A model generated the notes under the pieces. The model ran no database searches and was not told the origin of the DNA. It saw only the letters and a list, made by a program, of their open reading frames with translations. From Rhodanobacter sp. B05 (lineage in GTDB: Bacteria > Pseudomonadota > Gammaproteobacteria > Xanthomonadales > Rhodanobacteraceae): 64,000 nucleotides of DNA. Below, piece by piece: positions 18,169 through 54,026 of the stretch (position 1 is its first letter; each line of letters begins with the position of its first letter). Made by a program: the position numbers and the translations under genes. The stretch is from assembly GCF_002001085.1 (NCBI RefSeq), contig NZ_MUNU01000010.1, forward strand, positions 62,001 through 126,000. The letters run 5' to 3'.

Positions 18169-18224
18169 GTTGGCGTGCATCGCGGCGGCCCATCACATCA
18201 CTGTCGAAATACACGAGGTTTGCC

Positions 18225-18566: not shown

Positions 18567-18637
18567 AAGCCCGCACGGCTTGCCGATCCACCGTTGCACG
18601 AGCCGCCGGCCCATCCGGCGCATCCAGGAAATGCATT

Positions 18638-20506: not shown

Positions 20507-20518
20507 GCACTTGATCTG

Positions 20519-20669: not shown

Positions 20670-20688
20670 ACTAACCGGAGCCCCCGCC

Positions 20689-22490: not shown

Positions 22491-22531
22491 AGGCACATCC
22501 CGCCTGAATCTGTTGCCTTTTCGTATCCGGA

Positions 22532-23146: not shown

Positions 23147-23208
23147 CGATCACTCCCCTGAAATATCGTAGAAAACCGCCTCAAGAATCACGTTCCAGCT
23201 TGATCGCC

Positions 23209-23685: not shown

Positions 23686-23817
23686 TTTTGACACATTGCA
23701 GCCGAGTTTCGAGTTGACAACGATCCGGCAGCCTCCGAATTTGACATGGCATCGAGTCAGGTGGAGTCGAAATCTGCTATCTGAAATTCATCCAGAATGC
23801 CCCGCGGTGAGATTCGC

Positions 23818-30391: not shown

Positions 30392-30483
30392 GCTCGATTC
30401 CGTACGTCAAGTGCATTGCCTCCCCCCGGTGGCAGTGGCGCCGGAGTGTAACATAGCGCCCTTGTCGGTCCCGGTTGTCGAGC

Positions 30484-31476
30484 ATGGTTCAGGGATGTGA
30501 AACCCCTCAGATTGAAGCGCAGGTGCGGCGGGCACCGCGCGTGTCCTATCGCATGGCGCAGGCGGCGACGGTGCTGGACGAACCCGGAACTCTCGCCGTG
30601 TTCGGCTTCTCGAGCTCCGCTCCCGCCAGCGCCGATCCGCGTTATCTGGAAGTCGCACTGGACAGCTTCGATGCCCCGGCGCCGCTGGAGCTGTGGCAGG
30701 TCGACGCGCCGGTGGAATGCGGCGTCGAGGGCGCGCTGCGCTGGTCGGCCGGCGGCGGCTGGCTGTTCGCCGCGATCGAACTGGACGAGCTCGCGCATGG
30801 CGGCGCCTGCGCCACCGCGAAGCTGGCCTACGAGTTGCTGCATCGCTTCGTCGACGCGCGCGGCGCCCAGCATGTGCTGCGGGTGTGGAACTATCTTGGC
30901 GCGATCAACGAAGGCGAAGGCGACGCGGAACGCTACAAGCGCTTCTGCGAGGGTCGTGCCGCCGGCATGGGCAACTTCTTCGCCGAGGGTTTCCCGGCCG
31001 CCACCGCGATCGGCCACCGCGACACGGCGCAGCGGCTGCAGGTCTACCTGCTGGCCTGCGATCGCTCCGGCAGCCGGGTGGAGAACCCGCGCCAGGTCAG
31101 CGCCTGGCGCTACCCCCGCCAGTACGGTCGCACGGCGCCCAGCTTCGCCCGCGCGATGATCCTGCCGGCCTGCGACGCGCTGGCAATCTCCGGCACCGCG
31201 GCGGTGGTCGGCCACGCCTCGGCGCATCAGGACGATCTGGACGCCCAACTGGAGGAGACCCTGACCAACCTCGAGGCGCTGCTGGCCAGCGCCGGCATGG
31301 CCGCCGGCTTCGATACCCGCTCGCCACTGAAAACCTACGTACGCCACGCTGCCGACGCCCCGCGCGTGCGCGCGTTCCTGCAGCACCGCCTGCCCGGCGT
31401 GCCGGTGCTGCTGCTGCACGGCGACATCTGCCGCAGCGAGCTGCTGGTGGAGATCGATGGTTGGCGCTACGCCTGA
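30484..31476 (+). CDS. xanB2: XanB2-like chorismatase (FkbO/Hyg5 family)
   Basis: A 330-aa protein resembling XanB2, the bifunctional chorismatase that yields 3- and 4-hydroxybenzoate from chorismate for xanthomonadin and ubiquinone. Characteristic segments are HVLRVWNYLGAINEGEGDAERYKRFCEGR (conserved Arg, Asn and Glu) and a C-terminal half with ISGTAAVVGHASAHQDD. The ATG at 30484 is preferred; a TTG nine bases earlier is in frame. It is divergent from the ACP across a 92-bp gap with a possible -10 (TAACAT, 30450). Its last 47 coding bases are repeated exactly at 53245-53291. Confidence 0.85.
   Translation: MVQGCETPQIEAQVRRAPRVSYRMAQAATVLDEPGTLAVFGFSSSAPASADPRYLEVALDSFDAPAPLELWQVDAPVECGVEGALRWSAGGGWLFAAIELDELAHGGACATAKLAYELLHRFVDARGAQHVLRVWNYLGAINEGEGDAERYKRFCEGRAAGMGNFFAEGFPAATAIGHRDTAQRLQVYLLACDRSGSRVENPRQVSAWRYPRQYGRTAPSFARAMILPACDALAISGTAAVVGHASAHQDDLDAQLEETLTNLEALLASAGMAAGFDTRSPLKTYVRHAADAPRVRAFLQHRLPGVPVLLLHGDICRSELLVEIDGWRYA
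31426..31472 (+). repeat. Left 47-bp direct repeat (attL-like), end of xanB2
   Basis: This is the last 47 bp before the final codon and stop of xanB2, identical to 53245-53291. It encodes ICRSELLVEIDGWRY. Confidence 0.9.
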
Positions 31477-31627
31477 TACAGAGGCGGCCGAGCGACGCTG
31501 CGAATGGCACTTCATCAAGCCTGGTTTGCCGAGGTTCGTCAGCCTCGGTGTCTTTGCCCACGCTTCCCGCGACCCCTCCATCCCGCTCATGACCATCATT
31601 TGACCCGCGCTGCCGAATCGCCCGCTC

Positions 31628-31661
31628 TATACTCGCCGCAGCATCGGGGCAGGGGGCGGCA
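31628..31661 (+). promoter_or_regulatory. Candidate promoter of the membrane TPR array
   Basis: TATACT at 31628-31633 is a good -10 about 28 bp before the GTG start at 31662. TTGACC at 31600-31605 is nearby, but its 22-bp spacing is too long for a standard -35, so the upstream element is uncertain. A G-rich GGGGCAGGGGG stretch before the GTG may serve as ribosome-binding site. The rest of the gap 31477-31627 shows nothing recognisable. Confidence 0.4.
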
Positions 31662-33734
31662 GTGGAAGGGTTCTTCGCTCGACTGAGAGAACGCAAGTTG
31701 GTGCAATGGGCACTGGCCTATGCAGCCGGGGCATTTGCGTTGCTGCAGGGGCTCGACATCATCGCGCAGCAATTCGGTTGGCCGGATGGCATCCGACGCG
31801 GCATTACGCTGGCACTGGTGGTCGGATTCTTTGTCGTGCTGGTGCTCGCCTGGTATCACGGCGAACGTGGCGTGCAGAAGGTCACCGGAACCGAGTTGCT
31901 GATTCTGGCGTTGTTGCTGGCGATCGGCGGTGGAGCGCTCTGGCGCTATGCGCAAGCGCCTTTATCCGTTCCGGTTTCAGTTGCCGCCGTCGCGACCGCG
32001 CAAGCCGTGCCAGTCCCAACCGCAGCCGCAATGTCGATCCCGGCCAAATCCATCGCCGTGCTGCCGTTCGAGAATCTGAGTGGGGACAAGGACAACGCCT
32101 ATTTCGCCGACGGCATGCAGGATCTGATCCTGACCAAGCTCGCGGACATCGGCGATCTGAAAGTCATCTCGCGCACCTCCACGATGCAGTACGGCAGCCA
32201 TCCGCAAAACCTGAAAGCCATCGCGCAGCAGTTGGGCGTAGCGACGATTCTCGAAGGCAGCGTGCAGAAGGCGGGCAGCCAGGTGCTGATCAACGTGCAG
32301 TTGATCGACGCGCGTAGCGACAATCATTTGTGGGCCGAGAGTTATCAACGCACACTGGACAACATCTTCGGCGTCGAGGGTGAAGTCGCGCAGAAAGTCG
32401 CCGATGCGCTGGATGCCAAACTCTCGCCGGCCGAGGTGCAGGCCATCGCAAAGGTGCCCACCCACAACAAGGCCGCCCTCGACGCCTTCCTGAAGGCCGA
32501 TTATTACCTGGGTGATTCCAACCGTACCTACGACAAGCAGGAGCTCGAGCATGCCGCCGCGCTGGCCGACCAAGCCACGCAACTCGACCCCGATTTCGGC
32601 GATGCCTGGGATCTGCTGTCACTGGCGTACCTGAAATATGACGACTATGGCGACCGTAGCCGTATCCCGCAGGCAGAAGCCGCCGCGCGCCATGCGCTGG
32701 CGCTGAATCCGAACGATGCCCACGCGCATGGAACTCTCGGTTTGGTGCTGGGCATCAATGGCGACACCGCCGCAGCCATCGAGCAAGGCCAGGAAGCCGT
32801 ACGGCTGCATCCCGGCGTTGGGGAACTTGCGGGTCTTGGAAATTCTTACGGCGGCGCCGGCCGTTTCGCCGAGGCGGTGACCACCTATCAGCGCGCCATC
32901 CGGCTTGCGCCGAAGAGCAACGGCGCGCTCGGTTTCCTGGACAACAATCTCGCCGATTACTACATCGCGCAGCGCCACTATGCCGAGGCGCGGGATACCT
33001 TGCAGGGTGCAGCGTCGCGCGACCCGGCGAACGTGTCCGTGGCGACCAACTTGGCAAGCACATGGCAGTTGGGTTGGGGTGATCTGGCGGCCGCGCGCGA
33101 AGTGCTGCAGGCGGCGCCGACGCCAGTCGCGTCATCCGGGATACTTTCGGATGCGTGGTATTGGCAGGATCTTTACCAACGCGATTACGCGGCGGCGCTG
33201 GCTGTCATTGTCAGGGCGCCGGCCGCATGGTTCGCCAACCGGTATTACCCACACGCGCTGTATCAGGCGCAGGCGTATCAGGCACAAGGCGACACTGCGA
33301 AAGCGCGCACGGCCTTTGCGACAGCACGCACACAACTCGAAGCCTGGATCAAGGCCACGCCGGACAATGCGGTCCTGCATACCCATCTTGCCCTCGTGCT
33401 GGCCGGTCTGGGCGAGAACGATCATGCCATCCACGAGGCGCAACGCGCGGTTGCACTGCAACCCGTCACGAAAGATGCACTCGACGGGCCACAACAACTG
33501 GCTGCTCTCGCGGAGGTTAATGCCCGCATCGGCAACTCGGCTGCGGCCATCAAGCTGTTGAACCAACTCTTGGCGATGCCAGCCGGTGGCGTGATCTCGG
33601 TGCCGCTGCTCAAGCTCGACCCCGCCTGGGATCCGATCCGCCACGACCCACGCTTCCAGGCGCTGCTGAAGAAATACGCCAGCGCCACGCCGTCGGCTTC
33701 CGGCACCCTCATTGAACAAGGAACAACACCATGA
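31662..33734 (+). CDS. Membrane-anchored COG5616/FlgO-like domain TPR protein, paralog 1
   Basis: A 690-aa protein starting at GTG 31662. It has three predicted TM segments (about 14-34, 47-64, 78-94) within the class-1 head RKLVQWALAY...GWPD...AWYHGERG. A Pro/Ala-rich linker follows, then a COG5616/FlgO-like domain from IPAKSIAVLPFENLSG (about 127) through LEGSVQKAG and HLWAESYQRTLDNIFG to about 260. The rest is TPR-like. It ends with the array's shared tail motif DPIRHDPRFQALLKKY. The last domain is probably periplasmic. The function is unknown. The stop overlaps the next start by 4 bp, and the gene heads an unbroken same-strand run. Confidence 0.85.
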   Translation: MEGFFARLRERKLVQWALAYAAGAFALLQGLDIIAQQFGWPDGIRRGITLALVVGFFVVLVLAWYHGERGVQKVTGTELLILALLLAIGGGALWRYAQAPLSVPVSVAAVATAQAVPVPTAAAMSIPAKSIAVLPFENLSGDKDNAYFADGMQDLILTKLADIGDLKVISRTSTMQYGSHPQNLKAIAQQLGVATILEGSVQKAGSQVLINVQLIDARSDNHLWAESYQRTLDNIFGVEGEVAQKVADALDAKLSPAEVQAIAKVPTHNKAALDAFLKADYYLGDSNRTYDKQELEHAAALADQATQLDPDFGDAWDLLSLAYLKYDDYGDRSRIPQAEAAARHALALNPNDAHAHGTLGLVLGINGDTAAAIEQGQEAVRLHPGVGELAGLGNSYGGAGRFAEAVTTYQRAIRLAPKSNGALGFLDNNLADYYIAQRHYAEARDTLQGAASRDPANVSVATNLASTWQLGWGDLAAAREVLQAAPTPVASSGILSDAWYWQDLYQRDYAAALAVIVRAPAAWFANRYYPHALYQAQAYQAQGDTAKARTAFATARTQLEAWIKATPDNAVLHTHLALVLAGLGENDHAIHEAQRAVALQPVTKDALDGPQQLAALAEVNARIGNSAAAIKLLNQLLAMPAGGVISVPLLKLDPAWDPIRHDPRFQALLKKYASATPSASGTLIEQGTTP

Positions 33735-35404
33735 ACACGCGGCTCCGGTGTGGCGTTCTGATGTCGGTCGCGATCGTTGCGATGGCGCTCGCGCCGATGG
33801 CGTGGGCGGAACGGGGCACGACGCCGCAGACCATCGCGGGGCTGGGAACGGTGACATTCCCAACCTCCGCAGAATCGGATGCCGCGCAGACCGCGTTTGC
33901 GCGCGGCCTGCTGTTGCTGCATCTGTTCGAGTACCCGGACGCGGACGCGGCGTTCCAGCAGGCCGAGAAACTCGATCCCGGTTTCGCCATGGCCTACTGG
34001 GGCGAGGCGATGACCTACAACCATCCGGTGTGGAACGAACTCGATCTGGCCGCCGGCCGTGCCACGCTGCGCAAACTCGGCACCACGGAAGCGGCGCGCG
34101 AAGCCCGCGCACCGAGCGCGCGCGAGGAAGCCTATCTCGCTACGGTGAACATTCTGTATTTCGGCGCAGGCGACAAGCGGCAACGCGATACGCGCTACTG
34201 CGATGCGATGCGGCGACTGGCCGCGGCGTATCCACACGACAACAACGTGCAGTTGTTTTATGCACTCGCCCTGCTCGGTCGCGGCGAAGGCGTGCGCGAC
34301 GTACCGACGTACCTGCGCGCGGCCGCGATTGCCAGGCACATTTTCAAGCTCAATCCGCAGAATCCGGGCGCGGCGCATTACTGGATCCATGGCATGGACG
34401 ACCCGCAGCACGCCGCCGGTGCGCTGGTGGCGGCGCGCGCACTGTCGAAGATCGCGCCGGACGCAGGTCATGCCCAGCACATGACCTCGCATATCTTCAT
34501 GGCACTGGGCATGTGGGACGACGTGGTCACGGCCAACGAAAACGCGACGCGCGTGATGTACGCGCACGAGAAGGCGGCAGGCAAACCGCAGGTGCGTTGT
34601 TTCCATTACGACGAATGGCTGGAATACGCCTATTTCCAGCAGGGACGCCAGCACGATGCGGAGAACCTGCTGCAAGCGTGCCGGCGCACCGGTACCGCGG
34701 CGTTGCGCGGGATGGACAAGAAGCAGGCCGCGATGTTCCGCGATCAGTTCCAATGGTCGCTGATGCAGATGCGCGCGACGGCGGTGGTGGAGTTGCATGA
34801 TTGGAATGGCGCTGCGGCGCAGATGCGAATCGACACATCGACGCTTGGCGGCGAGGCGGGGTGGAATGACTTCGCCATCGGCTATGCCGCTGCGGAACGT
34901 GGCGATGCGGCGTTGGCGAAAACCTCGCTGGCTGCCCTGGACAAGCTGGCCGCGACGACCCAGCCGCCGAATCCCGATGACCCACAGCAAACCGGTTACC
35001 TGAAGATCCTGCGCGACGATCTCGACGGATTACTCGCGAGCAAGCGCAGCGATGACGCGCATGCGCTGGACCTCGTGCGTGCCGCCGCGAAGCGTTACGA
35101 CCATATGGCCTTCGACTTCGGACCGCCGGCGCCGGTCAAGCCGCCGCACGAACTGCTCGGCGAATTGCTGCTCGCGGCGGGCAAACCGGCGGCTGCCTGC
35201 ACCGAATTCGAGACGGCGCTCAAGAAAGCGCCCAACCGGACGCAGTCATTGCTGGGGCTGGCGCGGGCGCAAGCCGCGAGCCACGACACCGCGGCTGCCG
35301 CCGCCACCTACCAGCGGCTCGTGAAAATCTGGCACGTCGCCGATGCGGGCTTACCGGGACTGGATGAAGCGCGGCGTTATCTGGGCAGACGATCGCGTGG
35401 CTGA
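33731..35404 (+). CDS. Secreted TPR protein of the array
   Basis: A 557-aa precursor with signal peptide LMSVAIVAMALAPMAWA; it lacks the TM head and COG5616 domain of its neighbours. TPR motifs appear from LLHLFEYPDADAAFQQAEKLDPGF (about 50-75). The centre has conserved His-rich blocks, HYWIHGMDDPQHAAGA and GHAQHMTSHIFMALGMWDD. They recur in a widespread uncharacterised family and could bind a metal. C-terminal TPRs follow (AACTEFETALKKAPNRTQS). The start overlaps paralog 1 by ATGA and the end overlaps paralog 2 by 8 bp, so it is cotranslated with the array. Confidence 0.8.
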   Translation: MNTRLRCGVLMSVAIVAMALAPMAWAERGTTPQTIAGLGTVTFPTSAESDAAQTAFARGLLLLHLFEYPDADAAFQQAEKLDPGFAMAYWGEAMTYNHPVWNELDLAAGRATLRKLGTTEAAREARAPSAREEAYLATVNILYFGAGDKRQRDTRYCDAMRRLAAAYPHDNNVQLFYALALLGRGEGVRDVPTYLRAAAIARHIFKLNPQNPGAAHYWIHGMDDPQHAAGALVAARALSKIAPDAGHAQHMTSHIFMALGMWDDVVTANENATRVMYAHEKAAGKPQVRCFHYDEWLEYAYFQQGRQHDAENLLQACRRTGTAALRGMDKKQAAMFRDQFQWSLMQMRATAVVELHDWNGAAAQMRIDTSTLGGEAGWNDFAIGYAAAERGDAALAKTSLAALDKLAATTQPPNPDDPQQTGYLKILRDDLDGLLASKRSDDAHALDLVRAAAKRYDHMAFDFGPPAPVKPPHELLGELLLAAGKPAAACTEFETALKKAPNRTQSLLGLARAQAASHDTAAAAATYQRLVKIWHVADAGLPGLDEARRYLGRRSRG

Positions 35405-37481
35405 GTTCCTGCAACGGCTGAAGCAGCGCAAGCTGGTGCAGTGGGCGCTGGCGTACATCGCCGCAGCGTTCGCGTTGATCCAGGTGGTCGATGTTGTTGC
35501 GCAGCGCTTCGGCTGGCCCGACCCAGTCGAGCGCTTCATCATCATCGCACTCGCCGTCGGCTTTTTCGCGACGCTGGTACTCGCGTGGTATCACGGCGAA
35601 CGTGGCGTGCAGCGGGTGAGCGGAACGGAGTTGTTGATTCTCGCATTGCTGCTGGCGGTTGGCGGTGGCTTGTTGTGGCGCTACGCGCAAGCACCGCGAC
35701 CCATTCCGATTTCGGCTGCCGCCATGGCGACCGCGCAAGTTCCGTCTACGCGGGCAGTGGCGGCCGCGATGCCGATTCCCGCCAAATCCATCGCCGTACT
35801 ACCGTTCGAGAATCTCAGCGCGGACAAGAACAATGCCTACTTCGCCGACGGCATGCAGGACCTGATCCTGACTAAGCTCGCCGACATCGGCGACCTCAAG
35901 GTCATCTCGCGCACCTCAACCATGAAGTACGCCAGCCACCCTGATGACCTCAAGACCATCGCGCAGCAACTGGACGTCGCCACGATCCTGGAAGGCAGCG
36001 TGCAGAAAGCGGGCAATCAGGTGTTGATCAATGTTCAGTTGATCGACGCGCGCAGCGACAACCATCTGTGGGCCGAGAGTTACACGCGCACACTGGACAA
36101 CATCTTCGGGGTCGAAGGCGAGGTCGCGCAAAAGGTGGCCGATGCCTTGCAGGCCAGACTGACGAACACCGAACAGCAGAACGTCGCCGCGATCCCGACG
36201 CAAAACCCTGCCGCTTACGATTGGTTCTTCAAGGCGGAATACCAGGCCAACAAGGCATTCGATTCCCAGAACGCCGCGGACTTCAAGCTCGCCGAAGACG
36301 ACTATCGCCGGGCGATCGTGCTCGACCCGGGCTTCGCGCTCGCCTATGCCCGGCTTGCCTACTGGCAGATGGTCGGCCACTGGTTTGTCGCGCCGCTGAA
36401 CGACGAAGCATTGGCCAAGGTCAAGGCGACGATCGACCACACCCTGGCGATTGCGCCCGACCTGCCGGATGCACATCTGGCGCTCGGCTACTATTACTAC
36501 TGGGGTTATCGCCGCTATGCCGATGCCGCCGCGCAATTCGAGCGCGTGCTGCAACTCTCGCCCAACAATGCGCAGGCGCTTGGAGGGCTGGCGTTCATCG
36601 ATCGCCGCCGCGGCCGGTGGCCGCAAGCGCTGGCAACCCTGCAACAGGCGCTGTTGATCTCGCCGCGCGACGCCTACCTGCTCGGCCAGTATGGTTGGAC
36701 GTTGTGCATCATGCGGCGATATTGGGAAGCGGATCGGCAATTGACGCGCGCACTCGCGATCGAGCCAGGCAAGACCGACAACAAGGATGGACTTTGGAGA
36801 ACGCGCCTGATCGGATTGGGCGATGCTCCGGGTGCACGCAAGGCTTACGATCCCTTGCCCGGTTGGCGACTCGATACACCCATTGCAGCCGGGGAGATTG
36901 TTGCGCTGATCAATCCGATCGTCTACCCGGATGTATTCGAACGCCATTTTGATGCGGCGTCGAGCGCATGGGATTCGGCGCCGGTCGACACTGATGCGGG
37001 GCGGCTCACCCGCCGATCCGCACGCGTGGCCATCCAGGTTGTCGCAGGGCGGCAAGCGGCGATCCAGCCCGACTGCTCGCAATTGAAGCCATTACTCGAC
37101 GCGGCACTTGCGAAGCATCCCGATGTCATCGGCGACCTCCAGCAGGTCGCGTGGGTGGACGTGTGCCTGGGCCGCAACGCGGATGCCATAGCCGCCGCGC
37201 GTCGCGCATCGGAAGTCATGTCACTTTCCAGGGACGCCTACTTCGGCGCGTATGCCCTGGCGGGGCTGGCCGAGGTGGAAGCCCACGCGGGCGCGAAAGA
37301 CCAGGCGCTCCAGTTGATCGACCAACTGATGGCGATCCCGGCTGGTGAGGTCATGAGCGTGACCCGCCTGAAGCTCGATCCGGTGTGGGACCCGTTGCGC
37401 AGTGATCCGCGGTTCCAGGCGTTGCTCACGAAATATTCCGGCGTGCAGTCAATGGCAGCAACAAGCGGAGCATTGCCGTGA
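35397..37481 (+). CDS. Membrane-anchored COG5616/FlgO-like domain TPR protein, paralog 2
   Basis: 694 aa from GTG 35397, inside the end of the preceding gene. It has the class-1 head MAEFLQRLKQRKLVQWALAY with three TM segments and a COG5616 domain from KSIAVLPFENLSADKNN (about 130). That domain is nearly identical to paralog 1 through HLWAESYTRTLDNIFGVEGE. The TPR part differs (AAQFERVLQLSPNNAQALGG). It ends DPLRSDPRFQALLTKYSG. Paralogs 1 and 2 look like the most recent duplication in the array's COG5616 domain. Confidence 0.85.
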   Translation: MAEFLQRLKQRKLVQWALAYIAAAFALIQVVDVVAQRFGWPDPVERFIIIALAVGFFATLVLAWYHGERGVQRVSGTELLILALLLAVGGGLLWRYAQAPRPIPISAAAMATAQVPSTRAVAAAMPIPAKSIAVLPFENLSADKNNAYFADGMQDLILTKLADIGDLKVISRTSTMKYASHPDDLKTIAQQLDVATILEGSVQKAGNQVLINVQLIDARSDNHLWAESYTRTLDNIFGVEGEVAQKVADALQARLTNTEQQNVAAIPTQNPAAYDWFFKAEYQANKAFDSQNAADFKLAEDDYRRAIVLDPGFALAYARLAYWQMVGHWFVAPLNDEALAKVKATIDHTLAIAPDLPDAHLALGYYYYWGYRRYADAAAQFERVLQLSPNNAQALGGLAFIDRRRGRWPQALATLQQALLISPRDAYLLGQYGWTLCIMRRYWEADRQLTRALAIEPGKTDNKDGLWRTRLIGLGDAPGARKAYDPLPGWRLDTPIAAGEIVALINPIVYPDVFERHFDAASSAWDSAPVDTDAGRLTRRSARVAIQVVAGRQAAIQPDCSQLKPLLDAALAKHPDVIGDLQQVAWVDVCLGRNADAIAAARRASEVMSLSRDAYFGAYALAGLAEVEAHAGAKDQALQLIDQLMAIPAGEVMSVTRLKLDPVWDPLRSDPRFQALLTKYSGVQSMAATSGALP

Positions 37482-44744: not shown

Positions 44745-44989
44745 ACGTCAGACCGTCCCCCTTTTTCGAATTGCGACGCCGCAATGTGTGGCGCGCTGCG
44801 GTGCTGTACGCGGGCGCCAGCGCACGCGCCATGCTGGAGCGGCTCGCCGGGGTGCTGAATCCGAGCGCCGCCGCGCGGGGACGCGAGTTGACCGATGCGA
44901 TCGCCGGTCACGGGGACCGCCACGCGTTGGCGCTTCGTTATGCCGGATCCGCTGCGAGGCGCGATTTATCGAAGTGGTCAAGAAGATGA
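44741..44989 (+). pseudogene. Decayed class-2 paralog (head and a scrambled remnant)
   Basis: An 82-codon ORF starting in ATGA overlap with paralog 6. Residues 1-27 (MNVRPSPFFELRRRNVWRAAVLYAGAS) are the class-2 head. After that the TM segments, COG5616 domain and TPRs are missing. What follows (RAMLERLAGVLNPSAAARG) matches nothing in the array. In another frame, just before paralog 7, the sequence reads FIEVVKKMKTTDPYYAKVRG, possibly the end of a different lost gene. It is a deletion scar between paralogs 6 and 7; a short functional product is unlikely but possible. Confidence 0.7.
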
Positions 44990-45031
44990 AGACCACCGAT
45001 CCGTATTACGCAAAGGTGCGTGGGGGCAAGC

Positions 45032-46861
45032 ATGGGTGAACTTCTCGCACGCCTGAAGCAGCGCAAGCTAGTGCAATGGGCGCTGGCGTACCTCGCCGCG
45101 GGATGGGCGCTGTTGCAAGCGCTCGGTCTCGCGGTGGACAGCTACGACTGGCCGCACGACATCATGCGCATTGCGTTCGCCGTGATTGCGCTGGGCTTCG
45201 TCATCGCGCTGCTGCTGGCGTGGTACCACGGCGAGCGTGGTGCACAACGCGTCTCCGGCGCGGAATTGCTGCTGATCGCACTGGTATTGGCGATCGGCGG
45301 CGGATTGTTGTGGCGCCATGAACGTGCAGCACCTGCTCAAATCCGTAGCCCCGATGCAGCGCAGCGGAATCCGGGAAGGACCATCCCGGATTCCGTCGCT
45401 GCCGCGACTTCATCCGGGCTACCCATTGCGCCTGTGGCGGCGAGCGCGCCAACCATTCCGATTCCCGCAAAATCCATCGCGGTGTTGCCGTTCGTCAACA
45501 TGAGCGGCGATCCGAAGAACGATTATTTCAGCGACGGTATCACCGAGGAAATCCTGGACGCGCTGGCGCAGGTGCCGGATTTGAAAGTCGCCGCGCGCAC
45601 TTCCGCATTCGCCTTCAAGGGCAAGGCCGAGGACCTGCGCAAGGTCGGGGAGGTGCTGGATGTCGCGACGGTGCTGGAAGGCAGCGTGCAGAAATCCGGC
45701 GACGAGGTGCGCATCACCGCGCAGTTGATCGACACGCGCAGCGGCTATCACCTGTGGTCGGAGAAGTACGATCGCAAACTCACCAGCATCTTCGCGGTCG
45801 AGGATGAAATCTCCAAGGCGATCGCCGACAAGCTGAAAGTGCAACTGGCGGAGGGAAGCGGCTCAACGCTGGTAGCGCAGAAGACGGTCGATCCACGTGG
45901 GCACGATTTCTATTTGCGTGGATTGACCCTGCTGGCCGCGCGCTCGGTGGGCGAAGCGGTTGGCGTTTTCCAGCAGGCTGTCGCGATCGATCCGAACTAT
46001 GCGCAGGCATGGGCGGCATTGGCGGAAGCCCAGGCGCTGCTGCCAGGCTACGGGCCCGCGTCGGCCCAAGTCGCCTACGCGGATTCGCTGGCATCCGCGC
46101 AGCGTGCACTCACGCTGAATCCGGATACCGCGTTGGCTTTTGTCGCGCAAGGCATGGTGTACGGCAACCAGATGCGCTGGGCCGACGCGGATCGCGCCTT
46201 GCGCCGGGCACTGGCGCTCGCTCCCGGCGACGCCGAGGCCCTGAACCAGTACGCACAATTCCTGGACGGCGCGGGCCAGCTCGAACCCGCGCTGGTCGAA
46301 CTGGATCGCGCGCTGCAGCGCGATCCGCTGTCCGGGATCAGCGCCGCGATCCGGGTGCAACTCCGGTTGCGGTTGCATCGCGACGATGCCGCCACTGCCG
46401 CTTCGCAAATCGGGGCGATCGTGGCTGCGCATCCGGAGAGCCTGTTCGTCCACCGCGCCGCGCTGAACATCTATCTTGCCCTTCGGCGTTATCCGGAAGC
46501 GGAGGCCCAGGCTCGCGCGGCGGCTGCACTCGGCGGCACCAATCCGGAAGCCAGGGTGTTGCTGGTCCGGGGTATCGCCGATCCGGCCCAGCGCGCGCGC
46601 GCGGTACAAAGCCTGGAAACTGCATCGGCCAATGCAGAGATTCCTCGCGACGCGATCGTGCATGCCATGTTCCTGATCCAGTTGGGCGAGCGCGATCGCG
46701 CCCTGGATGCGCTGGAAGAATTCGCGGCGCGAGGCAACAGCACGGTTCCGCAATTGCTCTGGATTGAGGCGTTCGATCCCATCCGCAACGATCCGCGCTT
46801 CAAGGCGGTGCTGAAGAAGGTGGGATTGCCTTACGTGCCGCAGGATGCGGCGGCACCATGA
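45032..46861 (+). CDS. Membrane-anchored COG5616/FlgO-like domain TPR protein, paralog 7
   Basis: 609 aa from ATG 45032. It has the class-1 head MGELLARLKQRKLVQWALAY with DSYDWPHDIM, closest to paralog 4. The linker is long and contains a complete translated REP pair (45345-45422; peptide SPDAAQRNPGRTIPDSVAAA). The COG5616 domain, from KSIAVLPFVNMSGDPKNDYF, is nearly identical to paralog 5. So the protein appears mosaic, with a paralog-4-like head and paralog-5-like middle. TPRs follow (RALRRALALAPGDAEALNQY). The end is DPIRNDPRFKAVLKKVGLPY. The stop overlaps paralog 8. Confidence 0.84.
   Translation: MGELLARLKQRKLVQWALAYLAAGWALLQALGLAVDSYDWPHDIMRIAFAVIALGFVIALLLAWYHGERGAQRVSGAELLLIALVLAIGGGLLWRHERAAPAQIRSPDAAQRNPGRTIPDSVAAATSSGLPIAPVAASAPTIPIPAKSIAVLPFVNMSGDPKNDYFSDGITEEILDALAQVPDLKVAARTSAFAFKGKAEDLRKVGEVLDVATVLEGSVQKSGDEVRITAQLIDTRSGYHLWSEKYDRKLTSIFAVEDEISKAIADKLKVQLAEGSGSTLVAQKTVDPRGHDFYLRGLTLLAARSVGEAVGVFQQAVAIDPNYAQAWAALAEAQALLPGYGPASAQVAYADSLASAQRALTLNPDTALAFVAQGMVYGNQMRWADADRALRRALALAPGDAEALNQYAQFLDGAGQLEPALVELDRALQRDPLSGISAAIRVQLRLRLHRDDAATAASQIGAIVAAHPESLFVHRAALNIYLALRRYPEAEAQARAAAALGGTNPEARVLLVRGIADPAQRARAVQSLETASANAEIPRDAIVHAMFLIQLGERDRALDALEEFAARGNSTVPQLLWIEAFDPIRNDPRFKAVLKKVGLPYVPQDAAAP
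45345..45422. repeat. Complete REP pair in the linker of paralog 7
   Basis: GTAGCCCCGATGCAGCGCAG with GGAATCCGGGA on the left is faced by TCCCGGATTCCG and TCATCCGGGCTAC on the right. This makes an inverted pair of REP arms about 78 bp long, fully inside the reading frame. It is the intact version of the arms in paralogs 4 and 5. Confidence 0.75.
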
Positions 46862-48630
46862 GCACAAGGTACTCCTTGTTCGAAGAACTCAAGCGCCGCA
46901 ATGTGCTGCGCGCGGCAGCGTTGTACGCCGGTGCCGTGTGGGCGCTGGCGCAGGGCATTTCGCAGCTCGGGCCGCCGCTTGGCGCGCCGGCATGGATCAC
47001 GCGCTGGTTCGTGATCGCCGCATGCGTTGGCTTTCCGTTCTGGATCGCGTTCGCGTGGTTCTATGAATGGACGCCGCAGGGGCTGAGGCGCGAGAGCGAA
47101 ATCGCGCCGGACGATTCGGTCGCGCATTCGACCGGGCGCAAGCTGGACAAGTGGATCATCGCGGTGCTCGCCGTGGCGGTGGTGCTGCTGCTGACCGATC
47201 GATTCATCTCGCCCAGGGGAACGGGTGGAATCACGGACAAGTCCATCGCGGTATTGCCGCTCAGCAACGAAAGCGGCGAAAGGGACCAGCAGTATTTTTC
47301 GGATGGCCTGTCGGAAGACCTGATCACCGCGTTGTCGCAGTTCGCGGGCCTGAAGGTGATCGCGCGCGATTCATCGTTCAAGTTCCGCAATTCCAGCGAC
47401 GATCCGAAGACCATCGGCGAGAAACTCGGCGTGGCGCATCTGCTGGAAGGCAGCGTGCAACGCGCCGGCGACGTCGTGCGCGTCAGCGCGACCCTGATCA
47501 AAGCCGCCGACGGCACGGCGGTGTGGTCGCAGCACTACGACCGGCCGTACAAGGATCTGTTCGCGCTGCAGGACGACATCACTCAAAAGGTCGCCGCCGC
47601 GCTGAAAGCGAAGTTGCTCGACAACGGCAAGGCGGCACCGCAGGGCGATCGGCCGCCCAGCGGAAGCCTTGATGCATGGAACGCGTATTCGCGCGGACGC
47701 TTCCATGCCGTCCTGATCGATCCGGCAGACGCCCACGAGGCGATCGCGTTTTTCCAACAGGCGACCGCGATCGATCCGCATTACGCACGGGCCTATGCCA
47801 ATCTGGCCTACACGTGGGCGACGCTCGGAGGCACGTTCCTGAGCGGCGAGGAACAGCGGCAAGCCTTCGTCAAGGGCCGGGCCGCGGCCGAGCGGGCATT
47901 GCAACTGGATCCCGACATGGCGATGGCGCACGTGTCGCGCGCGGTGCTGCTGCAGTGGGCGGATTTCGATTGGACCGGGGCGGAGGCCGAATACCGTCGT
48001 GCCGTGGAGCTTGCACCCAATGACAGCCTGCCGCAGTTTGGACTGGGCCTCGTGCTCGGGGCACTCGGAGACCCACGGCGGGCGATCCCATTGATCCGGC
48101 GATCCATCGCGACCGATCCCCGCAGTGGCGCCGCCTGGTATTGGCTGGGCTGGAACCTCGCTGCCGCGGGCCAGCTCGATCAGGCCGAGCTCGCGGCGCG
48201 CAAGGCCATCGAGGTCATGCCGGGCAAATCGTTCCTTCCCGCCGGGCTCGCGCTCATTCAGATCCAGCGCGGCGAAGCCAAGGCCGCGCTGGCCACGGCG
48301 CAACGGGAACCGCCCGGCACATGGCGCGATATCGCGCTGGCCTTCGCCCTGCAAGTCGGCGACGACCGTGCTGCGGCCGATGCGGCGCTGCAGAACCTGA
48401 TCGCAAAGAGCGCTGACGGATCGGCTTACCAGATCGCCGAGGTGTATGGCTTGCGCAAGGACCCGGACAACATGTTCCAGTGGCTGGATCGCGCGTGGGA
48501 TACCCGTGATCCGGGCATCCAGCGATTGCTCACCGATCCGTTCATCCTGCGCTACAAGGATGATCCACGCTTCGCCGCGTTCTGCCGAAAGGTCGGCCTG
48601 CCGGCCACCGGCGCCAAGGCGCTGCCGTAA
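46858..48630 (+). CDS. Membrane-anchored COG5616/FlgO-like domain TPR protein, paralog 8 (class-2 head)
   Basis: 590 aa, ATGA overlap with paralog 7. It has the class-2 head SLFEELKRRNVLRAAALYAG with three TM segments and WTPQGLRRESEIAPDDSVAH. The COG5616 domain runs from DKSIAVLPLSNESGERDQQY with LSEDLITALSQFAGLKVIAR and LLEGSVQRAGDVVRVSATLI. TPRs follow (YRRAVELAPNDSLPQFGLGL). The end is LRYKDDPRFAAFCRKVGLPA. It is the last intact member of the array. The following 278 bp (48631-48908) have no gene. Confidence 0.84.
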   Translation: MSTRYSLFEELKRRNVLRAAALYAGAVWALAQGISQLGPPLGAPAWITRWFVIAACVGFPFWIAFAWFYEWTPQGLRRESEIAPDDSVAHSTGRKLDKWIIAVLAVAVVLLLTDRFISPRGTGGITDKSIAVLPLSNESGERDQQYFSDGLSEDLITALSQFAGLKVIARDSSFKFRNSSDDPKTIGEKLGVAHLLEGSVQRAGDVVRVSATLIKAADGTAVWSQHYDRPYKDLFALQDDITQKVAAALKAKLLDNGKAAPQGDRPPSGSLDAWNAYSRGRFHAVLIDPADAHEAIAFFQQATAIDPHYARAYANLAYTWATLGGTFLSGEEQRQAFVKGRAAAERALQLDPDMAMAHVSRAVLLQWADFDWTGAEAEYRRAVELAPNDSLPQFGLGLVLGALGDPRRAIPLIRRSIATDPRSGAAWYWLGWNLAAAGQLDQAELAARKAIEVMPGKSFLPAGLALIQIQRGEAKAALATAQREPPGTWRDIALAFALQVGDDRAAADAALQNLIAKSADGSAYQIAEVYGLRKDPDNMFQWLDRAWDTRDPGIQRLLTDPFILRYKDDPRFAAFCRKVGLPATGAKALP

Positions 48631-48847
48631 GGCGGAATACGCCCGCCACTGCCGCCGCGCACCCGGTTTCGTTGCCCCGGCGGGATTCGCCTGGTCTTCC
48701 CGCCCGCCGATTGCGCTCTGCATCGGTCATGACGGTGCAAAGGCTTTCCGAAAGTGCGCATTCGCGGCACTTGTGCGGCGGGAATCGCGCCGATAGCGTG
48801 GCGTCGCTGCGGGAGGCGGCCAACCGGCCGCGGCATGGCATCAAGAC

Positions 48848-48862
48848 TGCGCATGATGCGCA
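48848..48862. promoter_or_regulatory. Palindrome upstream of the first cytochrome gene
   Basis: TGCGCAT-G-ATGCGCA is a perfect 15-bp palindrome 47 bp before the cytochrome ATG. It could be an operator. The rest of the 48631-48908 gap has only a weak GGCG/CGCC hairpin after paralog 8 and a GTGGGGA ribosome-binding site before 48909. Confidence 0.35.
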
Positions 48863-48908
48863 CGTCGATTCGGGTAGGGAGTCACTCCTTTTCTGCGGTG
48901 GGGATGTC

Positions 48909-49919
48909 ATGCGTTTCCATTTGAAAGCTCGGGCTGCCGCCTGTGCGGCAGTGTGTGTGTTCGCATGTGTTGCCGGCGCGGCGATCGCCGCAACGGCCGC
49001 GAATGCAGCGGGCGATGATCCATTCCGCGCCGCGGAAGCGTGGGCGTTTCCAGTATTCCCGCCGCCGCCGGATCCGCACGCGCCGAAGCCAAAGTCCGAT
49101 CCGCGCAAGGTCCTGCACGTGACCGGCAGCGCAGTGAATTACACGCAGGCACAGATGGATGGCATCGATGACGCGGACTGGTTTCCGCAGGATCATCCGC
49201 CTGCGCCGCACATCGTGGAGGTGGGTCGCAAGCCGGCCCGACCTTGCGCCGAGTGCCACCTGATCAGCGGCATCGGTGTCCCCGCCACGGCGTCGCTGGA
49301 CGGCCTGCCGAAAGCGTACATCCTGGAACAGGTAGCCGCGTTCCACGCCGGCAAGCGCGGCATCGGTGGCCCCGCGACTGCGCACGACATGATCGATGAA
49401 GCGCGCGCACTGACGCCGGCCGATCTGCAGCAGGCAGCCGACTGTTTCTCGGCGACGAAGTTCGTTCCGCGCGTGCACGTGGTCGAAACGGCGAGCGTGC
49501 CGAAGATGCACTGGAAATATTTCGTGCAGGTGCCGGACGAGGGCGATGCGCGCGGACCCATCGGCGAGCGCATCATCGAAACGCCAGCAAGTTTCAGTGA
49601 CTACTCCCTGTCCGACGATCGCGTCCGCTACCTCGCCTACGTGCCGACGGGCAGCATCTCGCGCGGCGCGGTCATCGCCGCGAACGGCACCGGCGCGGCG
49701 GCATCGTGCGAATCCTGTCACGGCACGAAGCTGCAAGGCGTTGGCGACATTCCGTATCTCGCCGGGCGCTCGCCAACTTACATCGCACGCGAACTGATCC
49801 TGTTCCGGCTGGGACGCCGTACCAATCCCGGCGCGGCGCCGATGCGCGCGGAAGCCGCGCAGTTGACGCTGAATGACATGATCGACGTCGCCGCGTATGC
49901 GGCCTCGCGCAAACCTTGA
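48909..49919 (+). CDS. Periplasmic di-haem c-type cytochrome, copy 1
   Basis: A 336-aa precursor with an Ala-rich signal peptide (about 1-34). It has two haem c motifs: CAECH at about 113-117 and CESCH at about 275. The conserved block DADWFPQDHPPAPHIVEVGRKPARP lies before the first haem. GERIIETPASFSDY precedes the second domain, and the C-terminus has RSPTYIARELILFRLGRRTN. It resembles the cytochrome c subunits that accept electrons from secreted dehydrogenases. The partner enzyme is not identified. It is strongly similar to 51644-52651. Confidence 0.85.
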   Translation: MRFHLKARAAACAAVCVFACVAGAAIAATAANAAGDDPFRAAEAWAFPVFPPPPDPHAPKPKSDPRKVLHVTGSAVNYTQAQMDGIDDADWFPQDHPPAPHIVEVGRKPARPCAECHLISGIGVPATASLDGLPKAYILEQVAAFHAGKRGIGGPATAHDMIDEARALTPADLQQAADCFSATKFVPRVHVVETASVPKMHWKYFVQVPDEGDARGPIGERIIETPASFSDYSLSDDRVRYLAYVPTGSISRGAVIAANGTGAAASCESCHGTKLQGVGDIPYLAGRSPTYIARELILFRLGRRTNPGAAPMRAEAAQLTLNDMIDVAAYAASRKP

Positions 49920-50015
49920 CTTCCAGTAACACGACGCGGGATGCGGCGCTGTATCCACCGTGCAATCGCCTCGGCCTTCTTCGCGACAAATCATCAACAC
50001 ATGGCGGGGTGATCC

Positions 50016-51245
50016 ATGAAGAAAACCATTTCCTGCTGCGCGCTGCTGCTGGCTCTGATCTCCCCTCGGATCGCCGACGCAGCGCCGGGTTCCAGCCACT
50101 ATCTCTTTGTGTGGGCGATGGAAGCCCAACATCCTCATGCCTCGGTGCCGGAGATGACGCCGGCCGACATTCCCGCGCGGCGAAGCGGTCTGGGATTGGG
50201 CAAGGACTTCCTCGCGGTGTTCGACATCCGCCCTGGTCCATCGTTCGGCAAACTCGTGGCGATGCTGCCGGTCGGAGATGCGGCGCAGGCACATCACACG
50301 AACTACGCGGAACCCCCGAACGACATCCTGTACGCCAACGACTGGCTCGGGGATCGCACTTACGTCTTCGACCTTCGCGATCCCGTGCATCCGCGCCTCG
50401 CGCGGAAATTCGGCAGTGTCGGCGCATTCGGTTACCCCCACTCGTTTGTCCATCTCTCCAACGGCAACACACTGGCAACGTTCCAGTATTCCGGCGGGTT
50501 TAACCATGCCGCAGGCGGGTTGGTCGAGTTCGATCCGCAAGGCAAGGTCGTGAAGACCGCTTCGGCAGCCGTGGCCGGGCATCCCGACGTTCGCCCGTAC
50601 AGCTTGGCGGTGGACGAAAAACACGACCGCGTCGTCACCGGCAGCGCGGACATGATGGCTGCGCAGGTCAGCCATGTGGCGCAGGTCTGGCGGCTTTCCG
50701 ATCTGAAGCTGATGCAGACCATGCCGCTGCCGCCGCAACCCGACTGGTATTACGACACGGCTGCGGATTCGTCCGAGCCGCGCCTGCTTGCCGACGGCAA
50801 GACGGTCGTCGTTCCGACCTTCAATTGCGGTCTCTTCCTGGTCCGGAATCTGACGGGCGACCATCCTACGCTGCAGCATGTCTACGACTTCGGCTACCGC
50901 ACATGCGAAGTGCCGGTGGCCGTCGGCAATTTTCTGGTGGAAGCCGCGCAAAGCGGACACGCCATCGTGAGTCTCGACATGCGCGATCCGGAGCATCCGC
51001 GCGAAGTCAGCCGTATCCTGCTGCCGCCGGACGAATATCCGCACTGGCTGGCGCTCGAGCCGGGCGGAGGTCGCTTGGTCGTCACCGGTTACGGTGCGCT
51101 CGATACCAAGGTGCGATTTGCAACGATCGACCGCCAGACGGGCGAACTGAAGCTTGACCCGGCGGTGATCGATTTCACACGCACGTGGCCGGACGGCTGG
51201 CAAGGCAGCGCCATGCCGCACGGCGCCGTATTCAGCAATCCATGA
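50016..51245 (+). CDS. Secreted beta-propeller protein (selenium-binding/LVIVD-like)
   Basis: A 409-aa precursor with signal peptide MKKTISCCALLLALISPRIADA. Repeating propeller blades are visible: DILYANDWLGDRTYVFDLRD, AFGYPHSFVHLSNGNTLATF, YSLAVDEKHDRVVTGSADM and GHAIVSLDMRDPEHPREVSR. The overall pattern resembles SBP56/methanethiol-oxidase and LVIVD-repeat proteins, but the copper/selenium ligands cannot be confirmed by eye. It lies 96 bp after cytochrome copy 1, so it may be the enzyme or binding partner feeding it electrons. Confidence 0.7.
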   Translation: MKKTISCCALLLALISPRIADAAPGSSHYLFVWAMEAQHPHASVPEMTPADIPARRSGLGLGKDFLAVFDIRPGPSFGKLVAMLPVGDAAQAHHTNYAEPPNDILYANDWLGDRTYVFDLRDPVHPRLARKFGSVGAFGYPHSFVHLSNGNTLATFQYSGGFNHAAGGLVEFDPQGKVVKTASAAVAGHPDVRPYSLAVDEKHDRVVTGSADMMAAQVSHVAQVWRLSDLKLMQTMPLPPQPDWYYDTAADSSEPRLLADGKTVVVPTFNCGLFLVRNLTGDHPTLQHVYDFGYRTCEVPVAVGNFLVEAAQSGHAIVSLDMRDPEHPREVSRILLPPDEYPHWLALEPGGGRLVVTGYGALDTKVRFATIDRQTGELKLDPAVIDFTRTWPDGWQGSAMPHGAVFSNP

Positions 51246-51262
51246 GGACGAGGAGAACGCAC

Positions 51263-51535
51263 ATGAAGAAAATCGTTGCGGTTGTGGTGATGGTTTGCAT
51301 GGGCTTGTTTGCGGGAAGTGCCTGCGCGCAACCGGCTTTGTCGGCGGCGGAACAGGCGATCCGGCCGCAGATGGCGAAGATGTTCCAGGCCGCGAACGCG
51401 CACGATACCGATGCGTTCATGGCGACGATGGTGCGCGGTCCGAACCTGGTCTTCGCCATCAACGGCACGGTCATCCATTGTGGGATCCGGGTTTCGACCC
51501 GATCCGCGACGATCCGCGCTTCAAGGCAGTGCTGA
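51263..51535 (+). pseudogene. Truncated NTF2/SnoaL-like secreted protein
   Basis: Residues 1 to about 72 (signal peptide VVMVCMGLFAGSACA, then AANAHDTDAFMATMVRGPNLVFAINGTVIH) match the intact protein at 52675-53145. After TVIH the frame enters the 3' end of a membrane TPR gene in the wrong register, ends RSATIRASRQC and stops. The last 80 residues of the NTF2 fold are missing. The join is at shared TGGGAT bases. AGGAG precedes the start, so a short secreted peptide could still be made. Confidence 0.8.
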
Positions 51536-51582
51536 AGAAGACGGGATTGCCGTACAAGCCGCCGGAAACGGCGGCGCAGTAA
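51475..51582 (+). pseudogene. Orphan C-terminal tail of a lost membrane TPR paralog
   Basis: In frame 1 the bases read GFDPIRDDPRFKAVLKKTGL, then PYKPPETAAQ and a TAA stop. This is the tail shared by array paralogs 4, 5 and 7 (DPIRNDPRFKAVLKKMGLPY). No head or COG5616 domain precedes it. It overlaps the truncated NTF2-like gene in another frame, so a paralog once stood between the two cytochrome units and was deleted. Confidence 0.85.
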
Positions 51583-51643
51583 TCACCTGTGTTTGCAGAC
51601 GACGCGAATCCGAAAACATTCCTTTGTCGATCGGGGTTTTGAT

Positions 51644-52651
51644 GTGCGTACCGAAATTGGGAAATGGACCACCATTTCAGTAGCCGTATCGCTTGTGTTG
51701 CTGGTGACGGGCAGCTCGGTTGTCCTTGCACAGAATGCGCGGACATCGAGGAATGCCGAAATCCGCACCGCGATGACCTGGGCGTTTCCGCTCAATCCGC
51801 CGCCCGACCCGAACACGCCGCCGCCGGATATGCACAAACCGCTGCATGTGCCGGGCAGCACGCGCAGCTACACGCTGGCGCAGTACGACGCCATGTTCGG
51901 TGCACCCGACTGGTTCCCGCAGGATCATCCGCCGATGCCGCGCATCGTGGCCCGCGGCCGCAAGCCGGCGTGGGCCTGCGCGTATTGCCATCTGCCGAAC
52001 GGGCAAGGCCGTCCCGAGAATGCGGCGCTTGCGGGCTTGCCCGCTGCTTACATCATCGAGCAGGTCAAGGCGTTTCGCAGCGGCGAGCGCGCCAGCGGGC
52101 GGGCGGCCACGGCGAAATTCATGCCAGCCGAGGCACGCAACGTCGGCGACGTCGATCTCCGACTCGCCGCGGCCTATTTCTCGAAGCTCGAGTTCAAACC
52201 GTGGACGCGGGTGATCGAATCCCCGACGGTGCCGAAGACGCACATCGCGCACTGGATGCTGGCGGCAGATGCCGGGGGCGCACGCGAGCCGATCGGCGAG
52301 CGCATCATCGAAACCTCTACCGACATGGAACGCACCGAATTGCGCGATACGCGCTTCGGGTTCATCGCGTACGTGCCGCCCGGCAGCATCGCGCGCGGCG
52401 CGGTGATCGCGGCGAAAGGTATCGGCGCCGCGCAAGCCTGCGAATCCTGCCACGGCGCCGATCTGCGAGGCGTCGGCAATATCCCGCCGCTCGCGGGCCG
52501 GTCGCCGACCTATATCGTCCGTGAGCTAATCCTGTTTCAGACTGGCGGCCGTAGCAATGCCGGTGCCGCGCCGATGCAGCGGGAAGCGTTGCACCTGAGC
52601 TTGCGCGACATGATCGCGGTGGCGGCTTATGCCGCCTCGCGCGAGCCCTGA
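51644..52651 (+). CDS. Periplasmic di-haem c-type cytochrome, copy 2
   Basis: 335 aa from GTG 51644 (signal peptide ISVAVSLVLLVTGSSVVLAQ). A TTG at 51593 would give a longer, less natural N-terminus. The haem motifs are CAYCH and CESCH. It shares with copy 1 the blocks APDWFPQDHPPMPRIVARGRKPAWA, EPIGERIIETSTDMERT, YVPPGSIARGAVIAAKG and AGRSPTYIVRELILF. Divergence is moderate, so the duplication is not recent. The following NTF2-like gene starts 23 bp later. Confidence 0.84.
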   Translation: MRTEIGKWTTISVAVSLVLLVTGSSVVLAQNARTSRNAEIRTAMTWAFPLNPPPDPNTPPPDMHKPLHVPGSTRSYTLAQYDAMFGAPDWFPQDHPPMPRIVARGRKPAWACAYCHLPNGQGRPENAALAGLPAAYIIEQVKAFRSGERASGRAATAKFMPAEARNVGDVDLRLAAAYFSKLEFKPWTRVIESPTVPKTHIAHWMLAADAGGAREPIGERIIETSTDMERTELRDTRFGFIAYVPPGSIARGAVIAAKGIGAAQACESCHGADLRGVGNIPPLAGRSPTYIVRELILFQTGGRSNAGAAPMQREALHLSLRDMIAVAAYAASREP

Positions 52652-52674
52652 GGCTCGAATCGAGGAGAACTCGC

Positions 52675-53145
52675 ATGAAACGGTTTTGCCTGGTGGTTGT
52701 GATGCTTTGCATGGGCCTTTTCGCGGGCATCGCTTGCGCGCAATCCGCATCGTTGTCGGCGCAGCAGCAGATCGAAGCTGTCGAGGCCAACATGGGGCGC
52801 GCAGCGAAAGCACATGACGCCAAGCGTTTCATGGCGGCCTTCCAACACGGCCCGGAATTGGCTTTCGCGTTCAACGGCAGGGTCATCCATGGCTGGGATG
52901 CATTGTATGCGCAGCAGTTGAAGTGGTGGCGCGGCGGCAAATCCGACGTGGTTTACAGGCCGACTACCGCGACCGAGTTCTTGCAACTTGCGCCCGATGC
53001 ATGGGTGACCACCGCGACCCTGTCCTCGCGGCGGACCGGTCCTGACGGGAAGCCGGCGGTCGGAACCTTTACGGTCACCAGCATCTGGCGGAAATTCGCA
53101 GATGGCTGGCGCATCGTGTACGGCCACGAATCCTGGGTGCGCTAG
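52675..53145 (+). CDS. Secreted NTF2/SnoaL-like (DUF4440-type) protein
   Basis: A 156-aa precursor with signal peptide LVVVMLCMGLFAGIACA. The mature part has the alpha+beta cone pattern: RAAKAHDAKRFMAAFQHGPELAFAFNGRVIHGWDAL, then GTFTVTSIWRKFADGWRIVYGHESWV at the C-terminus, where the W-R-I-V-x-x-H-x-S ending is typical of DUF4440. Activity is unknown. It is preceded by GAGGAG and follows cytochrome copy 2. A broken paralog follows the beta-propeller gene. Confidence 0.78.
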   Translation: MKRFCLVVVMLCMGLFAGIACAQSASLSAQQQIEAVEANMGRAAKAHDAKRFMAAFQHGPELAFAFNGRVIHGWDALYAQQLKWWRGGKSDVVYRPTTATEFLQLAPDAWVTTATLSSRRTGPDGKPAVGTFTVTSIWRKFADGWRIVYGHESWVR

Positions 53146-53244
53146 CCTCGGCAGATTCCTGGCGAACCGGACTGTGCGTGAATGCATCACTGCCAATAGA
53201 GCGAAACACAGATGCGGAAAAATCTACTTCTGCCCACTTTCATT

Positions 53245-53291
53245 ATCTGCCGCAGCGAGCTGCTGGTGGAGATCGATGGTTGGCGCTACGC
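53245..53291 (+). repeat. Right 47-bp direct repeat (attR-like) of the xanB2 3' end
   Basis: Identical to 31426-31472, followed by GCG TAG in the xanB2 frame, so it would also complete that protein. The bases before it (CCCACTTTCATT) are unrelated to xanB2. The gap 53146-53364 otherwise holds nothing recognisable; no integrase fragment is seen. Confidence 0.9.
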
Positions 53292-53937: not shown

Positions 53938-54026
53938 CCGTGCCACTCCCCCTGTGTTTTCGCTTGGAAATCGTGTCCCGGAAAGGATTGGTGCCAACGG
54001 CCGCGAAGCCGTGGCACGCGGCCCGA

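What the first reader, a model, noticed from the sequence alone, without database searches (positions are those of the whole stretch)
31426..53291. A 47-bp perfect direct repeat of the xanB2 3' end brackets 21.8 kb: an island that restores its target gene
The last 47 bp of xanB2 (31426-31472) recur exactly at 53245-53291. In both places the frame closes one codon later (GCC TGA, GCG TAG) and the flanks differ. That is what site-specific integration at a gene 3' end leaves. The DNA between carries a tandem array and a cytochrome module unlike the housekeeping flanks. A pigment-gene 3' end as attachment site would be unusual. No integrase is visible, so the element may be a relic, mobilised in trans, or made by another duplication event.
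Basis: partly seen in the sequence, partly recalled or inferred. Interest (0 to 1): 0.82.

Follow-up and report, generated by a model that had tools for sequence, protein, structure and literature searches.

The report
Integrase-less island behind a pigment gene
A 21.8-kb block of accessory genes has been inserted at the very end of a pigment-related gene in one bacterial genome and left a second copy of that gene's last 47 letters on its far side, so the gene still reads through to a stop; it looks like a mobile island that has lost, or never carried, its own integration enzyme.

Summary
The last 47 bp of xanB2 (31426-31472) recur exactly at 53245-53291, and both frames close one codon later.

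The 21.8 kb is an insertion. In 42 of 43 congeneric genomes examined (the 43rd ends at a contig edge) glmU follows xanB2 without these genes; 9 of the 42 keep an o210 homologue between them, as the window has right of the second copy. The right copy marks the native gene end. Joining the flanks still gives a 333-aa XanB2.

Cargo: nine TPR genes, two cytochrome c genes, a 409-aa exported protein, a DUF4440 gene. No recombinase was recognised there.

A recurrent attachment site is not supported: of 233 family genomes 143 match the xanB2 end and only this one has two copies; viral contigs gave no exact match.

Site-specific integration at a gene 3' end, integrase now absent, is the best reading but unproven. 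The last ~270 bp of xanB2 resemble a non-sister lineage, so homologous transfer of the finished island is a serious alternative.

The parts
30475..31476 (+). xanB2 (FkbO/Hyg5-like chorismatase), 333 aa, target gene kept whole
   Evidence: PF21168 E 2.5e-34; TIGR04444 194.5 bits, below its 325-bit cut-off
31426..31472 (+). left 47-bp repeat copy, inside xanB2, followed by C TGA (new gene end)
   Evidence: the DNA beyond the stop beats the best of 30 shuffles in only 2 of 35 congeners, by one point
31473..53244 (.). inserted DNA between the two repeat copies; not found between xanB2 and glmU in 42 congeners (a 43rd inconclusive)
31662..48630 (+). tandem array of nine TPR-repeat ORFs of 557-712 aa
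48672..49919 (+). cytochrome c gene 1
   Evidence: PF00034
50016..51245 (+). 409-aa protein with an apparent signal peptide (my reading), weakly like methanethiol oxidase (38.8 bits, cut-off 650)
51185..51535 (+). probable truncated copy of the DUF4440 gene; my reading of the translation, no Pfam match
51593..52651 (+). cytochrome c gene 2, paralogue of gene 1
   Evidence: the gene-1 query matches it at 55% identity
52675..53145 (+). DUF4440 / SnoaL-like gene
53245..53291 (+). right 47-bp repeat copy, followed by G TAG: the native xanB2 end
   Evidence: with its flank it aligns continuously with the xanB2 end and downstream DNA of G031; the flank beats 30 shuffles in 5 of 35 congeners
53365..53997 (-). 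o210, native neighbour; homologues lie between xanB2 and glmU in 9 of 42 congeners
54027..55424 (-). glmU, conserved right neighbour

Best explanation
Shown: a 21.8-kb block of accessory genes lies in the last codons of xanB2 with a 47-bp duplication of the gene end; the native end now lies right of the block and a new end, with its own stop codon, closes xanB2. Inferred: the block came in as a circular or recombining form that carried a xanB2 3' end (GCC TGA) and crossed over with the chromosomal end (GCG TAG), as tyrosine-recombinase islands do at gene 3' ends. The recombinase was supplied from outside or has been lost, so the block is now an integrase-less island of the cis-mobilizable type.
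For: Empty site in 42 of 43 congeners examined, the other inconclusive. Right copy continuous with native downstream DNA. Joined flanks still give a 333-aa protein. Identity stops at the wobble base of the last codon and both sides then have a stop; 1.2-2.7% by chance. GCC TGA and GCG TAG end 14 and 4 of 35 relatives' genes. 47 bp lies within the 8-60 bp given for such repeats. No recombinase recognised in the block, which fits a decayed element.
Against: No integrase and no recognisable relic of one. Only 1 of 143 matching family genomes has a second copy; no viral, phage or plasmid record with the end was found. No recombinase-like inverted core: 331 of 1000 random 47-mers score as well. A comparable TPR/cytochrome cassette in the sister species G028 and G005, at a site empty in this genome, shows no repeat at its edges in G028 (11-12-base matches only away from the edges; G005 edges not tested), so such cassettes can enter without attachment sites. 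The lineage patch in xanB2 is not predicted by it.
Confidence: 0.5

Rival explanations
1. The finished island, with both repeat copies, was moved into this lineage by ordinary homologous recombination (transformation or conjugation) from a strain of another Rhodanobacter-like lineage, with one crossover inside xanB2 near 31.2 kb and one in o210 or glmU. How the repeat first arose is then unknown, and no integrase was needed here.
For: The xanB2 5' half groups with sister species G005/G028 (support 0.995) but 31200-31472 does not. Informative sites at 31203-31449: 24 of the G008/G035/G021 type, 3 of sister type; 0 of 5000 permutations reach this for the last 27 sites, 10 of 5000 for the last 35. 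Both repeat copies carry that type at 3 of 3 informative sites. The first 400 bp of glmU show no sister preference (6:6); further right sister type mostly prevails.
Against: The right flank is only weakly mosaic, and some later segments there also lack sister preference. The patch was noticed before it was tested, and a best-segment scan over the whole left flank is not significant (1022 of 5000; in blocks 1281 of 5000). The tree of the 3' end has low support (0.287, 0.713). The island was not seen at this site in any congener examined. The patch may be an independent gene conversion.
Confidence: 0.27
2. Non-specific insertion: a break near the end of xanB2 captured foreign DNA and repair duplicated 47 bp of the target.
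For: Gives perfect identity for free; an unrelated 5.7-kb insert at the same gap in G014 (helicase-like gene and hipA) has no copy of the gene end with up to 16 mismatches; the G028 cassette has no repeat at its edges.
Against: Needs luck for the in-frame stop (1.2-2.7%) and for landing in the last codon.
Confidence: 0.15
3. Homology-facilitated illegitimate recombination: donor DNA with a complete xanB2 plus the cassettes recombined in xanB2 and joined illegitimately 47 bp before the native end.
For: Would leave this layout; the process is known (PMC3240628, abstract).
Against: The residual native 47 bp should be sister-like, yet it is identical to the left copy and not sister-type at 3 of 3 sites; cross-species identity of 47/47 is rare, 4 of 630 pairs.
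Confidence: 0.06
4. Assembly artefact: a misjoin at a 47-bp repeat.
For: Short exact repeat at a junction; draft genome of 19 contigs.
Against: The right copy has its own distinct upstream sequence, and the contig is 230 kb; a misjoin alone does not create a second copy.
Confidence: 0.02

Closest known systems
CIME (cis-mobilizable element), decayed ICE/IME keeping attL and attR (PMC5704250, passages)
   Same: Flanking direct repeats of which one completes the target gene; no integrase recognised. Transfer genes were not searched for by name; the domain scans showed none.
   Different: No related ICE or IME with the same site was found, and movement is not shown.
Microcin H47 genomic island of E. 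coli (PMC3191183, abstract and part 1 of Results; PMC5426353, abstract)
   Same: Island between direct repeats without its own recombinase; there, excision and integration were detected with functions from outside the island, also without RecA.
   Different: H47 repeats are extensive and imperfect and the cargo is a microcin; here the repeat is a perfect 47-bp gene end and mobility is untested.
IMEs at protein-gene 3' ends, e.g. SGI1 (trmE) and GIsul2 (guaA) (PMC5704250, table passage)
   Same: Insertion at a gene 3' end with a repeat that keeps the gene whole.
   Different: Those are listed with a tyrosine recombinase; none was recognised here, and xanB2 is not among the targets in the passages shown.

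Membership tests
Site-specific genomic island at a gene 3' end | Direct repeats flank the block and one completes the target gene | tested here: met
Site-specific genomic island at a gene 3' end | Empty site with a single copy in relatives | tested here: met
   42 of 43 congeners, 1 inconclusive; one copy in 142 of 143 matching family genomes, 90 of 233 had no match
Site-specific genomic island at a gene 3' end | Encodes an integrase | tested here: not met
   PF00589: 6 matches in the genome, none on the window's contig; PF00239: none in the genome; domain scans of island ORFs show none
Site-specific genomic island at a gene 3' end | Same site used by other elements (typical, not required) | tested here: not met
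CIME | attL and attR kept, integration and transfer genes lost | tested here: inconclusive
   repeats present, such genes not seen, but recombination at the repeats is not shown
CIME | Related ICE/IME with the same att specificity | tested here: not met
   none found among 233 family genomes, viral contigs, phages or plasmids at the sensitivity used
CIME / H47-type island | Excision and circular form | not testable with these tools
   needs PCR or reads

The most novel reading that the evidence does not exclude
TPR/cytochrome cassettes of this bacterial family are a passenger class that moves without any recombinase of its own, using a short stretch of host gene-end sequence as a docking site for host or foreign recombination, as claimed for the H47 island.
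Probability: 0.1. Interest if true: 0.6.

Novelty: new member of a known kind. Interest (0 to 1): 0.36.

Why it matters
It is a clean and apparently recent insertion with an intact target gene and no recognised recombinase. It offers one more case in which to ask how islands without integrases get in: by a lost integrase, by help in trans, or by homologous exchange of flanks, which leaves a testable mosaic pattern like the one hinted at here in xanB2.

Tried and rejected
Recurrent attachment site: searched with a 97-bp query and a degenerate 35-base pattern with up to 3 mismatches in 233 family genomes, a 30-base exact degenerate pattern in viral contigs (none), and an 81-bp query in phages (117 records at E up to 10, best E in the 20 rows shown 0.2) and plasmids (159 records, best E in the 20 rows shown 4e-3). 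No phage or plasmid match covered 80% of the query; four plasmid rows lie in Streptomyces FkbO/Hyg5-family chorismatase genes, that is homologues. In one search the match list was cut, so weak second copies could be hidden there; one search covers up to 3 mismatches.

Repeats around related cassettes: exact direct repeats of 20 bp or more were sought in 42 fetched regions, some from the same genome twice. Most found lie within TPR/cytochrome paralogues; a few (in G072, G063, G074, L095, L098) I did not follow up. In G028 I looked for shared 11-mers between two stretches around the cassette edges: five hits, forming 11-12-base matches, none at the edges.

xanB2 as a wholly foreign gene: rejected; its full-length tree groups it with G005 and G028 (0.977). 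Only the 3' part departs.

tRNA or other RNA gene as target: ARAGORN and Rfam at gathering threshold found none in the window.

Phage or plasmid origin of the cargo: the 409-aa protein has one plasmid relative at 34.6% identity and no viral relative found; TPR gene 6 matches 165 plasmid records, mostly rhizobial, at 60-90% identity, none covering 80%, about a fifth of the gene in the 10 rows shown.

Literature: 'xanB2' with 'integrat' and 'genomic island' gave 4 papers (listing only); 'chorismatase', 'integration site', 'attB' (two of three) gave 701 papers, of which 10 were listed, none containing 'chorismatase'. I found no report of xanB2 as an integration site in these searches. A Rhodanobacter genome paper (PMC8809349, passages) reports 27 to 43 predicted genomic islands per genome, so islands as such are common there. 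Searches were seen as listings, apart from the papers named.

Full report
Observation. The 47 bp at 31426-31472 and 53245-53291 are identical; the left copy continues C TGA, the right G TAG. In the whole genome (19 contigs, 3.8 Mb; the window lies on contig C17) the query finds these two full copies and one 26-bp partial match elsewhere.

It is an insertion. I fetched the region downstream of xanB2 from 35 congeneric genomes (G001-G035) and later from 8 more (G208-G211, G213-G216); one further congener of the family list, G212, gave no DNA match and was not fetched. In 42 of these 43 glmU follows xanB2; in G027 the contig ends first. None of the window's TPR, cytochrome, 409-aa or DUF4440 genes was detected in the gap. 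In 9 of the 42 (7 of the first 35, 2 of the 8) an o210 homologue sits in the gap. In the window o210 ends 73 bp right of the right copy. The right copy and its flank align continuously with the xanB2 end and downstream DNA of G031. Scored against 30 shuffles, the right flank beats them in 5 of 35 congeners, clearly in 4; the flank beyond the left stop does so in 2 of 35, by one point. So the right copy is where the gene used to end. Outside the genus, 10 of 12 genomes fetched show xanB2 then glmU; G060 and G074 do not within about 6.5 kb.

The gene is kept whole. Joining the flanks as the empty site gives a 333-aa XanB2 with the same last residues as the present one. Random island DNA would close the frame in the next codon in 1.2-2.7% of positions.

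Cargo. Nine TPR ORFs (557-712 aa), two paralogous cytochrome c genes, a 409-aa protein with a weak methanethiol-oxidase match, and DUF4440. No tyrosine recombinase lies on the window's contig (6 matches elsewhere in the genome, 5 over the cut-off); no serine recombinase was found in the genome. Ten further ORFs of the island, nine of them antisense, have no domain. At the thresholds used, and this genome included, the 409-aa protein occurs in 18 of 233 family genomes, TPR gene 6 in 49 and cytochrome 1 in 21 of 233. TPR genes next to cytochrome genes recur in other genera and in the sister species G028 and G005; the best DNA matches elsewhere reach 85-90%. In G028 such a cassette lies within 6.9 kb, and in G005 within 5.2 kb, of DNA at another site that is empty in this genome; no repeat was seen at the G028 edges, though 11-12-base matches exist away from them. 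The cassette kind is thus ordinary accessory DNA of this family.

One event. A degenerate pattern of the xanB2 end with up to 3 mismatches matches 143 of 233 family genomes; only this genome has two. The 47-mer differs from those of all 35 congeners compared (39-46 of 47 identical), and only 4 of 630 species pairs are identical. The second copy therefore comes from the same or a very near lineage, or was made by duplication, and the event is recent on the scale of species (inference).

Mosaic. Trees of five segments around the island and of xanB2 put this genome with G005 and G028 (0.977-1.0). The xanB2 5' half does so too (0.995), but 31000-31425 and 31200-31472 do not, with modest support for where they go instead. 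At sites where the sisters differ from G008/G035/G021, 31203-31449 has 24 of that type and 3 of sister type, while the rest of the left flank is near even (308:272, summed). For the last 27 sites 0 of 5000 permutations match this, for the last 35 sites 10 of 5000. Both 47-bp copies have that type at 3 of 3 sites. On the right, 54045-54444 is 6:6; beyond it sister type mostly prevails, but not in every segment. Against this: the region was seen before it was tested, and a best-segment scan over the whole left flank is not significant (1022 of 5000; in blocks 1281 of 5000). I read it as a hint that DNA of another lineage came in together with, or before, the island.

Mechanism. Best: recombination between a xanB2 end on the incoming DNA and the chromosomal end, as in tyrosine-recombinase islands, recombinase absent now (0.5). 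Main rival: homologous transfer of the finished island (0.27). Third: insertion with target duplication (0.15). Shown: insertion, duplication, intact gene, no recognised recombinase. Inferred: strand exchange within the 47 bp, source of the recombinase, route of entry.

Known kinds. A review gives 8-60 bp direct repeats for tyrosine-recombinase elements, lists protein-gene 3' ends as targets and defines CIMEs (PMC5704250, passages). The H47 island excises and integrates without its own recombinase (PMC3191183, abstract and Results part 1; PMC5426353, abstract). This element may work like these; membership is not shown.

Noticed in passing
L058 (G014:C29), about 1000-6700: A different 5.7-kb insert between xanB2 and glmU: a helicase-like gene with ankyrin repeats, and a hipA gene with an HTH partner; no copy of the xanB2 end with up to 16 mismatches.
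   Followed up: partly
window 31203-31449: The last ~270 bp of xanB2 carry the sequence type of a non-sister lineage, right up to the island.
   Followed up: yes
window 12000-22300: In the stretches upstream of xanB2 fetched from 20 congeners (about 20 kb each, two shorter), this region was matched only in G028; in others it may lie further away.
   Followed up: no
window 22500-23900: Low-GC stretch (about 0.60) without long matches in the stretches of the 20 congeners and with a 34-bp direct repeat at 23275/23424.
   Followed up: no
window 51185-51535: Probable truncated second DUF4440 copy between the two cytochrome genes, suggesting a partial tandem duplication.
   Followed up: partly
window 16868 and 20560: A 35-bp exact direct repeat, not examined.
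   Followed up: no
L131 (G028:C69) about 6765-13700 and L140 (G005:C17): Sister species carry a TPR/cytochrome cassette (within 6.9 kb in G028 and 5.2 kb in G005) between a transporter-like and a peptidase-like gene (my reading of translations), at a site empty in this genome.
   Followed up: partly
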